From Marchantia polymorpha subsp. ruderalis (lineage: Eukaryota; Streptophyta; Marchantiopsida; Marchantiales; Marchantiaceae), in NCBI GenBank assembly GCA_037833965.1, contig AP031355.1, positions 10,007,501-10,071,500 on the forward strand: a stretch of DNA of 64,000 nt. Direction: 5' to 3'. The notes under the pieces are model-generated. The model did not search any database and was not told the origin of the DNA. It saw only the letters and a list, made by a program, of their open reading frames with translations. Each line of letters opens with the position of its first letter. Positions within the stretch are counted from its first letter, which is position 1. Shown piece by piece: positions 2,837 to 8,229 of this stretch. The position numbers and the translations under genes are program-made.

Positions 2837-3342
2837 TGTGGTACCCCACTTTTGGCAATTTTGAGGAAATTAAAACATTTTTGGAAAACTGTACCCTGGC
2901 AGCATTGTAAATAGCCTTCGGTACATCAAAACAGAGTGAATCCGGAAGATCGCGGGGATTCTCGAGGGATCTTGTAGAATCTGGGATTTGGGGTGCCGCA
3001 GTAAGGACAGGCACCACCCTCCCTGCGAGCTCCGCAATTAGGATCTCTACGGCGCAAGGCGCAAAACCCGCCTTCGGAGGTTGCGTCCGCGGCTGTAGGG
3101 AAACCCCCGTAATTAGGTAAACCCTCGGGCGCCTTGACCAAGTTAGGGTCCCGTTGAAAAGAGCTCGACGCGCTGATTCTAACGAGCCCAAGAACGCTTG
3201 GAACGGACAAGGACTTAGGGAGTTATCGCTACTGGAAGAAACGGAGGCGGTCGCCTACGGCGGAAGGAGTTCGCCACCGGCGCGAATTCCGCCTACGCAG
3301 AAGGGGGAATCAAGTTTTGTCCTATGCACGGACGAAGGCGTT

Positions 3343-3796
3343 CGCCTGTGCACAGGCGAAGTAGGGTTAGGGAAGGCGCGAAGTCCGCCTACGCACAGGC
3401 GAACGCCTGTGCACAGGCACTTCGGCGTCGGCGGAAAATCCGCCTTGGGCCCTAGAAATGCGCCTTGTGAGGTAGAAAGTGTACGGCGCCTTCCGCGCCA
3501 GCGCAGCGCCGCGTACGTCGGAAGAGCCGCCAGAGTAATCCAATAGGTACGGACCGTGCGGACGGCACGGGTGGATGCGCTCTTGGACGGACGGAGTTGC
3601 GGCGGCGGAAGCGCCGACGGAGAGACAAGGAACGGACAGACTGGACGGAGACGGCTGACCACGGTCAACGCCTTCCGCGCCAGCGCAGCGCCGCGGACGG
3701 AATTCGCCTGCGCACAGGCGAACGCCTGTGCACAGGAGGATGTTCAAGTTCCGCGCCGGCGGAGAATCTGCCGAGGCCCCTGCCTGCGCACAGGCA
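3343..3796. repeat. Cluster of 16-bp palindromes upstream of the LTR reading frame
   Basis: CGCCTGTGCACAGGCG, a perfect palindrome, occurs at 3343-3358. Close variants lie at 3386-3401 (centre TACGCA), 3404-3419, 3705-3720 (centre TGCGCA), 3723-3738 and 3781-3796. Shorter CGCC-TTCGG-CG and TCCGCGGA palindromes lie between them. The same set appears in every family A LTR, and CGCCTTCGGCG-type units abound in family C LTRs. The function is unknown. They could be protein-binding sites, hairpins in RNA, or a proliferating short repeat. Confidence 0.8.
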
Positions 3797-4082
3797 GGAG
3801 TTGAATTTTTGTCCGACATGCGGACACACGCGTCAAGGCAGCGGGAGATTGGCCGAGGGGCGGTACGAACAAGTGTACCGCGCAAGGCGGAAAACTCGCC
3901 TTCGGCGCTACGCCCCCATGTCCGCAGGGCGACACGCTCGCGGAGTTCAAATCCGCCAATTCGAGCGTGAGAGTTTAATCGACGACGGCGGAGCGTGAAG
4001 CCGCGCGTGAGAGCGAAGACCGTTCCAGCGTACAGCCGGCGCGGCCATCAAGTGAGACGTTCTTCACGACCAAGAGCCGACC

Positions 4083-7000
4083 ATGACCTTCGACCGGGCG
4101 GCGGAGAACGTCCCATTCTTGAATTCGCGATTCCAATCTCTTGTGCGCGCTGCGCGCATCCATCTGCTGGCTGCGGAACATTCTCGACGTCGTCGCACAA
4201 GAGATTTCTTGTTGATTGAGGGAGAAGTGAGTGCGCGTGATTTGAAATTGAGAGCGATTAGAGTTTGCCGAGAGAGAAAGAAACGCGGGCAGTGCGGAAG
4301 TAGAATGAGCGGGCGAGCGAACCCCAGGAACGCAATGACGAGACCGAGCAGATTGCGGATGGTGCCACTTCGCTTGCCGCAGAACGGGCTGCGCGCTTTT
4401 GAGGAGCGCTTAATAGCAAGAAAGCTCGATTTCTTGCTATGGGGATGGAATTACATCTGTGCGAATATGGTGCGCGAGTGGCTAGAGCCACAGGGACCAC
4501 CCTCGCGCGGATTGCGTCCGCATGTTGATCGGTGGACAGTCCAAGATTGGGTGCAGGCGTTGGGAAGATGTGCTGGCATGCCAGGGCATCTCCTTTTCGA
4601 CAGTGAGAGCATCAAGGTGACCAAGCAAGAAGAGGCGCAATTTGTGGAGCTGTTCAAGACCGGGAGGTCTACCAAGAATGGGTACAGGACCCGTGATTAC
4701 AAGGATCGATTTCGCCGGACTTTGTCCGCGGCGCTGATGCAATTACTGCAGCCGCACCGCGCCTGCTACATCACATTGTGGCAGGTCTCTTTTGTGGAGT
4801 GCGTCATCGAGGGAACTCCAATTCACTGGGCGAGCATCCTGCACAGGGTGATGCGACAGCACGCGTTTGAGGAGAAGGGGGGAACTCTAAACCATCTTTC
4901 TCCTTTCCTCATCAATTTTTATCGACAGCGGAATTGTTTGACAGCGGCGGAGCTTGAACATTTTCCGCCATTGTCCATCGACCATCCCGGGAAGTATGTG
5001 CGGGAGAACGAGGTCGATACTGACGCAGAGGAGTCCCCGACTTCTACCCCATCAAGACGGAGAGACAAAGGGAGACACACCCCCGCAGCGCGAGTGCCGC
5101 GGAAGCGGCGATGGAGGGAAGAGTCTGAAGAGGAGCAGCATCTAGAACCCTCTGCTCCCATTCGACCGCGGCCGCTGTGCGAGCCATACAGCCGGCCGAA
5201 GCAGAAGGCACGCAGACTGGTGTTACCAGCTGACAGTGCAGACACGGCGACGATTGCGACGGAGATAGGAAGTGCGTCGCCAGAGAGGCGAGAAGAAGCG
5301 CGGACGACCGCAGGAGCAACGGGCCACGCTGCAACCTCGTCGGGAGAGAGGCCGCCTACGGGCCAAGGGCCTCCGGAGTTACCACGGGCGATGTGGACAG
5401 ATGTTCCGTTTGCGCACAGGCGAACCTCCGCGGACGGACGAGCCTCCGCGGACCGGCGAACACAAGTGGACGTGGATCTACGCTTACGCGTGGGAAGGAG
5501 CAGTCCGCCTGTGCACAGGCGCTCACCTGTGCACAGGTCGCCTGTGCACAGGACACCTCCACACGTGCCGCCTGTGCACAGGCAAGAATCACCCCCGTTC
5601 CAACGTAGGAAGGGGAAGGAGCCGGCGGAAGAACCGCCTACGAGACACCGGCCCTCGGGGCCAGACCCTCCGGCGCACCACGCGCCGCAATTTGCGCCTT
5701 CGGCGCCAGGGCCTTCGAGCCGAGGAGATACGAGCAGAGAGCGTGCGGAGGCCGCACCATCGGCGGGAAGTCCGCCGATAGATGCGCCTTCGGCGGTAGG
5801 GCCTATAGGCCAAGGAACATCGGGCGTGCGGCCCCCGGCCATGTCGCCTTCGGCGATAGATGTCCGCGGCGCTACGCCTGCGGCGGACAAGGCGCCGGCA
5901 AATGCGCCTGCGCACGGGCCGGGCACGGCCCCCACGGACCGATCAAGGGAGCAGCGGACGATGGAGCGGAGCGACTGTCCGCGGGATGAAATCTCGATGC
6001 GCGATGCGCAATCTAACCCCGCGCAGCCACCCTCCGCTCAATCGCCTTCGGCGACGGACGACGGCGACAGAGAGAATGCGGTAGGCAATCAACCAGCGAG
6101 CGACGGGGATGCCGCTCGGGTACATTCGCCTTCCGCCTTAGACATTTTGGCGACGAGCAGCGAGGCTGCAGCCGTGCCTTCGCAGGCAGCACACGTCGAG
6201 GACGTGCAGCCCCACTCGGGGCAGTCGCCGACGCAATCAATGGCGACTGAAATTCTCCACTCGGATGATGACGACGGAGGCTCCACGGAAGAAATGTCAG
6301 GAGCAGAAGACACCGAGGAGGAGGAGGAGGAAATTGTTGGAGCGCCGGCGGCGGCGCTCTCTGAGCAGGTGATTCCGTTGCTGGGGTACTTGGATCGCAA
6401 GGTCGATAAATACGCCGACCCACTCCAGCCGGGATCTTACATCGAGTTAGTGCGCAGGCGGACTCGCACTAAAGTCCACACCAGCAAGCTATTAGCTAGA
6501 GTGGACCAGGAGTTGAGGGACTTGAAGGAGAAGCATGAGTGCTTGTGGGGACAGTACAAGCTTAATCAGAAATTCTACAAGCACTCCGAGAAGATGAAGG
6601 ATGAGAAACTGGGCGAGCTCACCAAGGAGCAGGTGAAGGTCAAGGAAGCGCTCGATTCTGAGCAGGCCCAGAATCGGATTTTGTCAGAGGAGCTCGTGCG
6701 ACAGACGCGGTTGTTGGAACAATGTCAGCTCGCACGGCAGGCGGATGAAGAGTTAATCCGCAGGTTGCAGTCAGAGTGTGGCGAATTGAGAGCGCAACGT
6801 GCTGAAGCCGAATCGCAATTAGTGATGATTGAAGAGGATCGCAGGAAGGAGGCGGATCGCACGAAGGTGGAGACGGCAAGGCGAGTCGCCCACTGTCTCA
6901 AGGGCTACGCCCACTGGGAAGTGAAGGCGCAGGAGAAACTCACACTGCGTGAGTTTGAATTGCGCGCAGCCGGGTTGTTGTCAGGCGACAGTAGGAGTCG

Positions 7001-7256: not shown

Positions 7257-7285
7257 TATAAAATAGTTCCTGGCGTTTTGCCTGG
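7257..7285 (+). promoter_or_regulatory. LTR core promoter: TATA box and adjacent hairpin
   Basis: TATAAAAT at 7257-7264 is kept in all family A and C LTRs here (19911, 23288, 31190, 50133; minus strand 32272-32279 and 41315-41322). Families at 58628 and 60814-60821 carry TATAAAGT. A short inverted repeat follows (CCTGGC/GCCTGG at 7269-7274 and 7280-7285), near where transcription should begin. In other copies the arms are CCAGGC/GCCTGG or CAAGGC/GCCTTG. This is inferred to be the promoter for genomic RNA, with U3 upstream and R/U5 downstream. Confidence 0.75.
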
Positions 7286-7629
7286 GGTTCTTTCCCATCA
7301 GAAGTACAGATCAGGAACCCATTTCCTTTGCGTGTTTGTGTCTTTGAGTTCTGTCACCACGCACGAGGAGTTACAACTTAGCGTTCCGCATTTTGTAGCT
7401 GAAGGCCTTCGGCCGAATGTTCAGAGCTAGTACATTGGTTAGAGACTTGAGTAGTTCGGATCTGCACCTGCGGGTGACTGCCGATGCTAAGAGCCAGTGA
7501 CTAGTTAGATACTTGAACAGTTTCGCCCCTACACCTTCGAGTGTTTCTTTCTGATTGTACTCCTTGGGATTTTTCCCCTGAATGCCAAAGTGAAGTTTTG
7601 CTACTTCGTGTAAGCCTTGGTTGTAAATT

Positions 7630-8140
7630 CAGGTTACGCTGCAGCAGGTGCCTTGAGGGTAACCCCTGTAGTATTTCTGGGAATGACAAGTGCCTGAGAA
7701 TTCAAACTCTTCAATAGACTGTTGTTGTGTTACTGGAATGTTTCACAGTGAGTCCTTCAGTGCGGACCTGTGTTCTCTGCGCGTTTTGTGAGTTGAGAGT
7801 GTTGTTCACCGCGTAGGAGTGACTTCGATCCGAAGTAGGCAGTCCAAACCGGGTTTCCTACACTAGCAGCAAGCTAGTGGAAGTGTTGTAAAAGCCGGAG
7901 TTGGAAGTCACTGCCCGCAGCTTTGCCGAGTGTGCTCGTGAGAGACTTTCCCCCTGAAATCTTGAAGTAGAGGTCCTAACGGATCTCTGGGTTGTGTTTC
8001 TGTAGTTTCAGGTGTGTGTGTGTGTGTGCGTTACGCTGCACTGTGCGACCTCCGAGTGCGCTCCGAGTGGACACTTGCAGTATTTCTGGGAGTGACAGTT
8101 GCCTGAGAATTCAAACTCCTCAATAGTCTGTTAAAACGTG
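7630..8140 (+). repeat. Duplicated block in U5 and GT microsatellite
   Basis: Two related segments of about 100 bp lie in U5. The first is at about 7630-7735 and the second at about 8004-8140. Both contain a TTCAGG...TTACGCTGCA stretch, then GTATTTCTGGGA, TGCCTGAGAATTCAAACTC and TCAATAG.CTGTT. The second has a run of GT dinucleotides (about 8010-8028) between the first two blocks. All A and C LTRs show the arrangement, so the duplication predates the families' split. Confidence 0.7.
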
Positions 8141-8229
8141 ACACTTTGTACCCTGTGTGTTCCTCTGTCCCTGTGGGTTCGACCTTTCTACCACTATATT
8201 GCAGTTTTAGCCTTTAGTGGGTTATTACA

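What the first reader, a model, noticed from the sequence alone, without database searches (positions are those of the whole stretch)
2837..8229. Giant LTRs that carry a 1,040-codon reading frame in U3
Seen: the same 3.1-kb frame occurs inside every family A LTR. Three copies are open end to end (4083-7220, 16755-19874, 41359-44499). The LTR ends are proved by three solo LTRs with exact five-base duplications and by polypurine tracts. Known: LTRs normally hold only promoter and terminator signals. An LTR-encoded protein such as the superantigen of mouse mammary tumour virus is a rare exception. Inference: the family has acquired an accessory gene that is duplicated with every insertion and survives even as a solo LTR. 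The protein (conserved block, disordered linker, acidic run, coiled coil) matches no retrotransposon protein I know.
Basis: partly seen in the sequence, partly recalled or inferred. Interest (0 to 1): 0.88.

Follow-up and report, generated by a model that had tools for sequence, protein, structure and literature searches.

The report
Retrotransposon with gene inside its LTRs
In a liverwort genome, a retrotransposon carries a large extra protein gene inside the repeated ends that normally hold only control signals, so the gene is doubled with each insertion and can stay behind when the rest of the element is lost.

Summary
The window lies in a liverwort genome whose named protein relatives are all Marchantia polymorpha. 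Family A LTRs are 5,393 bp (2837-8229) and contain a 1,045-codon frame (4083-7220). The ends are proved by three solo LTRs in the window with 5-bp duplications, one with its empty site still present (766/770 identical), by seven more solos among 17 loci, and by tRNA-Asp primer sites and polypurine tracts. In full-length elements the 5.8-kb internal part is gag-pol; the extra frame is in the LTR. The only TATA motif lies just after the frame's stop, so the frame sits in U3, behind pol and behind the polypurine tract. The frame is under purifying selection (median dN/dS 0.24; 0.07 in the conserved block, like pol). A relative with 42.5% protein identity has the same layout, as a solo LTR with a perfect duplication. 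One LTR pair differs at 3 of 5,363 positions, so movement is recent. The protein matches no Pfam family; it has basic clusters, an acidic run and a long coiled coil. Transcription and function were not seen; I infer a trans-acting nuclear accessory protein. I found no plant precedent in the open-licence papers searched.

The parts
2837..8229 (+). Family A LTR, 5,393 bp, 3' LTR of an element whose pol end is 1-2836
4083..7220 (+). LTR-encoded frame, 1,045 codons (possible start at codon 85, base 4335)
2820..2836 (+). Polypurine tract directly before the LTR and before the frame
   Evidence: PPT|LTR string occurs 651 times in the genome
3343..3740 (.). First cluster of palindromes (CCTGTGCACAGG core), before the frame
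5414..5582 (.). Second cluster of the palindromes, inside the frame's linker
7257..7266 (+). TATAAAATAG, the only TATA-type motif in the LTR; marks the core promoter after the frame
7287..8229 (+). Inferred R and U5 (start about 30 nt after TATA), the most conserved part of the LTR
   Evidence: position of the start inferred
1..2836 (+). 3' part of pol (RT, RNase H, integrase) of the A element
8230..13905 (+). gag-pro-pol of a second (B) element without its first 142 nt; 37 nt with a polypurine tract lie between pol stop and LTR
13906..24254 (+). B LTR in two pieces (13906-15508 and 20886-24254) around the solo A LTR
15509..20880 (+). Solo A LTR, duplication ATGGT, open frame 16755-19874
26819..37545 (+). 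Solo B LTR, duplication GTAAT, interrupted by a solo A LTR; empty site at 54643-55414
31307..36681 (-). Solo A LTR, duplication AGAAG, frame stops after 394 codons
40350..45744 (-). A 3' LTR behind a polypurine tract, open frame 41359-44499 (minus)

Best explanation
A Ty3/gypsy-type LTR retrotransposon family of a liverwort keeps an additional gene in U3 of its LTR. SHOWN: pol ends 37 nt before the LTR with the polypurine tract in between; the frame follows inside the LTR; the single TATA motif comes after the frame. FOLLOWS from the established rules of reverse transcription: plus-strand synthesis starts at the polypurine tract, so everything from there to R becomes U3; a gene after pol with the tract in front of it is therefore part of the LTR, is copied to both ends at each insertion and is left behind in each solo LTR. 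INFERRED: the protein is made from a subgenomic RNA (spliced from the genomic RNA, or started in the 1.25 kb before the frame) and acts in trans as a nuclear coiled-coil accessory factor of the element. My odds: architecture, coding and selection about 0.95; U3 placement about 0.85; nuclear trans-acting role about 0.4. The figure below is for the gene-in-U3 reading including selection, not for the role.
For: Solo LTRs with duplications and an empty site. Internal length 5,785-5,817 in 40 of 100 listed 5' junctions, filled by gag-pol. One TATA motif, 37 nt past the stop, exact string in 19 of 20 A loci and 2 of 3 B loci, variant in D; conservation jumps after it. dN/dS median 0.243 over 90 pairs of A frames, 0.071 in residues 91-330, against gag 0.204, pro 0.156, pol 0.082; A against B 0.30-0.41. 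Frame complete in 14 of 20 A loci and 6 of 7 solos. D-type solo LTR with the same layout at 42.5% protein identity. Basic clusters, long coiled coil, no membrane stretch.
Against: No transcript or peptide was seen; the RNA start is read from one motif. B and D copies carry stops. 6 of 20 A frames are broken. Structure models are poor outside the coiled coil. How the frame is translated is unknown.
Confidence: 0.82

Rival explanations
1. The protein is the liverwort counterpart of plant env-like sense ORFs after pol and works at membranes or in movement between cells; only its place relative to the polypurine tract differs.
For: Same order pol then ORF, same strand, as in env-like elements (PMC7264820, parts 1-2 read).
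Against: No membrane-spanning stretch (best 19-residue Kyte-Doolittle mean 1.21); basic clusters and coiled coil instead; inside the LTR, not before it.
Confidence: 0.12
2. The frame is only a passenger; its DNA or RNA matters in cis, for example for packaging or regulation.
For: Palindromes lie inside the frame's linker as well as before it.
Against: Changes are mainly synonymous and concentrated at third positions; relatives keep the protein at 42.5% identity.
Confidence: 0.03
3. A host gene captured recently by one element.
For: Order of events cannot be read from the window; gene capture by retrotransposons is known (PMC7264820).
Against: Three LTR subfamilies carry it; all named relatives are Marchantia hypothetical proteins and none carries a recognised host domain in the listing; they were not checked one by one for being host genes.
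Confidence: 0.05
4. LTR ends misread, or an assembly artefact of stacked copies.
For: Tandem LTR-internal arrays with 11.09-11.3 kb period exist and can blur ends.
Against: Dispersed solos with different duplications, an empty site, hundreds of exact junctions with zero reversed controls.
Confidence: 0.01

Closest known systems
Mouse mammary tumour virus sag (betaretrovirus)
   Same: Accessory protein encoded by the 3' LTR, which is exceptionally long for that reason (PMC3026287, passages); same logic of a gene between polypurine tract and R.
   Different: Sag is a superantigen made from spliced RNAs; here the frame is about 1,040 codons in a 5.4-kb LTR of a plant element, with no membrane stretch and no RNA data. 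Sag's fold was not compared.
Additional ORFs of plant LTR retrotransposons (Athila, Bagy2 env-like; Grande, RIRE2, Retand antisense)
   Same: Extra selected gene after pol; Grande's is a nuclear protein (PMC7264820, parts 1-2 of 3 read).
   Different: Those are described as lying in the internal region; here inside the LTR, sense strand, no shared Pfam domain.
Rice Retrosat2 / RIRE3 / RIRE8 with ORF0
   Same: Long LTRs (over 3 kb) and an extra ORF of unknown function (PMC3485330, sections 8, 10, 14 and passages).
   Different: ORF0 lies upstream of the gag-pol ORF; Retrosat2 puts its TATA near the start of the LTR (U3 1-244), here it is at 4421 of 5,393.
VANC anti-silencing proteins of Arabidopsis VANDAL transposons (recalled; paper searches and look-ups failed)
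   Same: Idea only: a transposon protein acting in trans on short repeated motifs of its own family; a palindrome is strongly enriched in U3 here.
   Different: VANDALs are DNA transposons; binding is untested here and the one D-type LTR nearly lacks the palindrome.

Membership tests
Ty3/gypsy LTR retrotransposon | gag, protease, then RT - RNase H - integrase in that order | tested here: met
   Pfam matches in 8138-13868
Ty3/gypsy LTR retrotransposon | LTRs with TG..CA ends, 5-bp duplication, tRNA primer site, polypurine tract | tested here: met
   primer site matches 18 nt of tRNA-Asp(GTC) (end of the tRNA gene set by me, see report)
Athila/Tat lineage | tRNA-Asp type primer site (recalled as typical) | tested here: met
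Athila/Tat lineage | Place in an RT tree with reference elements | not tested
   no reference RTs fetched
Tat with additional RNase H | second RNase H domain | tested here: not met
   no such Pfam match in the window pol
Chromovirus | chromodomain after integrase | tested here: not met
   no such Pfam match in the window pol
LTR-encoded accessory gene (layout of MMTV sag) | frame wholly between LTR start and core promoter | tested here: met
   frame 1247-4384, TATA 4421 of 5,393; promoter inferred from sequence
LTR-encoded accessory gene (layout of MMTV sag) | protein made, from spliced or separate RNA | not testable with these tools
   no RNA data for this genome
Env-like additional ORF | in the internal region, between pol and 3' LTR | tested here: not met
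   37 nt between pol stop and LTR
Env-like additional ORF | membrane-spanning stretch | tested here: not met
   best hydropathy mean 1.21
Plant transposon domain Transposase_32 (PF20167) | profile match | tested here: inconclusive
   not among listed matches of 8 or 73 relatives (25 of 36 families listed in 89); genome scan silent, but its control rang nowhere

The most novel reading that the evidence does not exclude
The LTR is a self-contained regulatory cassette: it encodes a nuclear coiled-coil protein that recognises the palindromes repeated in its own U3 (CGCCTGTGCACAGGCG, 5,032 exact sites in the genome) and keeps promoters of the family active or unsilenced in trans. Solo LTRs would then be working gene copies, giving the family a genome-wide reservoir of its own activator.
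Probability: 0.18. Interest if true: 0.9.

Novelty: new variant of a known kind. Interest (0 to 1): 0.74.

Why it matters
Extra genes of plant retrotransposons are reviewed as lying in the internal region (PMC7264820). Here a large gene under purifying selection sits in U3, so recombination between LTRs, which normally strips an element of its genes, leaves this one behind. That makes two things testable: whether placing the polypurine tract before an extra gene is enough to turn it into an LTR gene, and whether solo LTRs can act in trans. It also warns annotators: the M. polymorpha relatives are filed as hypothetical proteins.

Tried and rejected
Rejected: chance frame; wrong LTR ends; passenger frame. 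A grass origin (Oropetium), my first guess, was dropped when the relatives proved to be Marchantia. Self-priming and an initiator-Met primer at 8230 gave nothing beyond one 9-mer; the reason became clear when the window's leader proved truncated.

Not confirmed: that the window's A element is nested in the leader of the B element. The predicted string ACGAG + LTR start occurs nowhere in the genome, and the piece fetched to look for the 5' LTR (L029) proved to be gag. Deletion or recombination at 8229/8230 stays open.

Led nowhere: both structure models are poor overall (mean pLDDT 40.7 and 43.7), so no fold search was run; Pfam, NCBIfam and PDB sequence searches; PF20167 scan with a silent control; a first tRNA pattern was mis-spaced (0 hits) and was corrected. 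Literature: the listings showed no plant frame inside an LTR; only five papers were opened (PMC3485330, PMC9985172, PMC7264820, PMC11963269, PMC3026287), in parts, and the library holds open-licence papers only.

Rows dropped: one search treated 17 of the 20 fetched A loci (L010, L017, L021 had no clean ends). One search used 11 of the 14 full-frame loci (L014, L015, L028 left out as array neighbours of loci used) plus 3 window frames: 91 pairs, 1 without usable ratio dropped. One search used the 100 listed of 756 LTR|leader junctions and 68 of the 100 listed of 651 PPT|LTR junctions. One search used 72 of the relatives found; four of its rows show 0-19% identity to the first. Homology searches scored only the candidates sharing most words.
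Full report
WHERE IT IS. The window is C6:10007501-10071500 of a 241-Mb genome in nine contigs. One of them, P0007, finds at best a 62% match in this genome, so I take the genome to be another liverwort; its species was not determined.

ANATOMY. Self-comparison shows two LTR families, A and B, mostly 86-90% alike. An A LTR is 5,393 bp, starts TGTGGTACC and ends GGTTATTACA. 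Its frame spans LTR positions 1247-4384. Four complete A LTRs lie in the window: three frames are open (the third on the minus strand) and one stops after 394 codons. Random sequences with the LTR's dinucleotide make-up had no ORF over 398 codons in 1,000 trials.

THE ENDS ARE REAL. Solo LTRs with 5-bp duplications: A at 15509-20880 (ATGGT) inside a B LTR; A at 31307-36681 (AGAAG) inside another B LTR; and that B LTR itself, 26819-37545 (GTAAT), whose unoccupied copy survives at 54643-55414. Flanks joined across the insertion match it at 766 of 770 positions. Of 20 further A loci fetched, 17 had readable ends and 7 of these are solos with exact duplications; another 7 show the LTR followed by a 21-nt spacer and the primer site TGGCGCCGCTGCCGGGGA. 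That site matches 18 nt of tRNA-Asp(GTC) genes of this genome (29 sites of the tRNA pattern; both loci scanned are tRNA-Asp). The tRNA finder puts the gene end one base further, so a mechanical comparison breaks after 3 nt; I count the mature end as GGCG plus CCA, as in plant tRNA-Asp (recalled). LTR 2837-8229 itself lacks this leader: its right neighbour starts 142 nt further in, and a nested insertion as the reason was not confirmed.

GENOME-WIDE. Exact strings: 2,234 LTR 5' ends, 756 LTR|leader junctions, 651 PPT|LTR junctions, each with a reversed control of 0. Of the 100 LTR|leader junctions listed, 51 pair with a PPT junction within 20 kb (68 PPT junctions were offered), and 40 of these give an internal length of 5,785-5,817. 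The internal part is gag-pro-pol; pol stops 37 nt before the LTR and the gap holds the polypurine tract. So there is no room for the frame outside the LTR. Tandem LTR-internal arrays with a period of 11.09-11.3 kb also occur. One element on C8 has LTRs differing at 3 of 5,363 aligned positions and the duplication TCACT, so the family moved recently.

U3 RATHER THAN R OR U5. The one match to a TATA pattern in the LTR is TATAAAATAG at 4421, 37 nt past the stop. The exact string recurs in 19 of 20 A loci (in L012 on a neighbouring copy) and 2 of 3 B loci; the D-type LTR has TATAAGG at the aligned place. From there to the LTR end A and D are 0.83-0.91 identical in 200-nt steps, against 0.44-0.77 upstream. 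This fits an RNA start near 7287 and an R-U5 of about 0.94 kb. It is inference from sequence.

CODING AND SELECTED. In 20 A loci 14 frames are complete (1,034-1,046 codons), including 6 of 7 solos. Among 14 complete frames (11 loci and 3 of the window) the median dN/dS is 0.243 over 90 pairs (range 0.151-0.438); by segment 0.327 (residues 1-90), 0.071 (91-330), 0.357 (331-740), 0.193 (741-1045). Controls, A against B: gag 0.204, pro 0.156, pol 0.082. A against B for the frame: 0.30-0.41, with 0-4 stops per B sequence. A more distant, D-type LTR of 4,775 bp (L033) is a solo with the duplication GGCTC and encodes a protein 42.5% identical to residues 85-1045; this copy has one stop in the frame. 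So the layout is old, and the selection must act through rounds of transposition. Many relatives align from residue 85 on, so the true start may be codon 85; one relative, P0078, keeps the first 84 residues.

THE PROTEIN. Residues 91-330 are conserved and predicted helical with low confidence; 331-740 is a linker rich in P, S and A; then an acidic run, a conserved stretch around 755-805 and a helix over 802-966 with block pLDDT up to 92. Basic clusters near 340 and 1026 could be nuclear signals. No stretch looks membrane-spanning. No Pfam family is matched by more than 2 of 73 relatives and no PDB sequence is matched. The models are too poor elsewhere for fold comparison.

A PALINDROME IN U3. 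CGCCTGTGCACAGGCG occurs 5,032 times exactly in the genome, its reversed control never. The A LTR has 11 half sites where shuffles give 0.12 (at most 2), and the internal part has none; one B LTR has 8, the one D LTR has 1. They cluster before the frame and inside its linker. In the window 10 of 11 full sites lie in LTR intervals, which cover 38.3 of 64 kb; the other, at 57800, lies in an LTR remnant. It could be a cis site for the protein or mere local amplification; the near absence in D speaks against an old, essential role.

HOW IT PROBABLY WORKS. Plus-strand synthesis starts at the polypurine tract, and what lies between it and R becomes U3. A gene after pol with the tract in front of it is thus part of the LTR and is doubled by the normal cycle. 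This follows from the anatomy. That the protein acts in trans in the nucleus (nuclear entry, transcription or anti-silencing) is my inference, about 0.4. Expression by splicing or by a promoter in the first 1.25 kb of U3 cannot be told apart here.

WHAT IS KNOWN. [quoted passage not shown]). Rice Retrosat2 has long LTRs and an ORF0 upstream of gag-pol (PMC3485330, sections 8, 10, 14 and passages). MMTV Sag is the layout precedent (PMC3026287, passages). A phrase search for frames in LTRs returned two papers, neither on plants by title (listing only). A link to Athila through the primer site is a lead from memory; no RT tree was made.

VERDICT. Its expression and function are open.

Noticed in passing
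window 3343-3740 and 5414-5582; genome-wide: 16-bp palindrome CGCCTGTGCACAGGCG, 5,032 exact copies in the genome and concentrated in U3 of these LTRs.
   Followed up: partly
G000 C6:28.27-28.36 Mb, C2:31.35-31.38 Mb, C3:20.85-20.88 Mb: Tandem arrays of LTR-internal units with constant periods of 11,156, 11,184 and 11,092 bp.
   Followed up: no
G000 C1, about 2.34, 2.74 and 3.10 Mb: Three blocks with the same order and near-equal spacing of LTR junctions on the small contig C1, which suggests large segmental duplications.
   Followed up: no
window 8229/8230: The A LTR joins the leader of another element 142 nt in, without the primer site; neither nesting nor deletion could be shown.
   Followed up: partly
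window 24313-26283, 38046-40316, 51091-53307 (all minus): Frames of other Ty3/gypsy-type elements with lower G+C: RT-RNase H-integrase in the first two, gag and protease in the third.
   Followed up: no
protein P0100 (M. polymorpha): A gene model that runs from integrase-type sequence straight into this protein's conserved block, as expected if pol is followed by the LTR frame in M. polymorpha too.
   Followed up: no
A, B and D LTRs: GCCTTCGGC-type words recur 6-8 times in each LTR type and are not among the commonest words of the internal part; in RNA they could form UUCG hairpins (inference).
   Followed up: no
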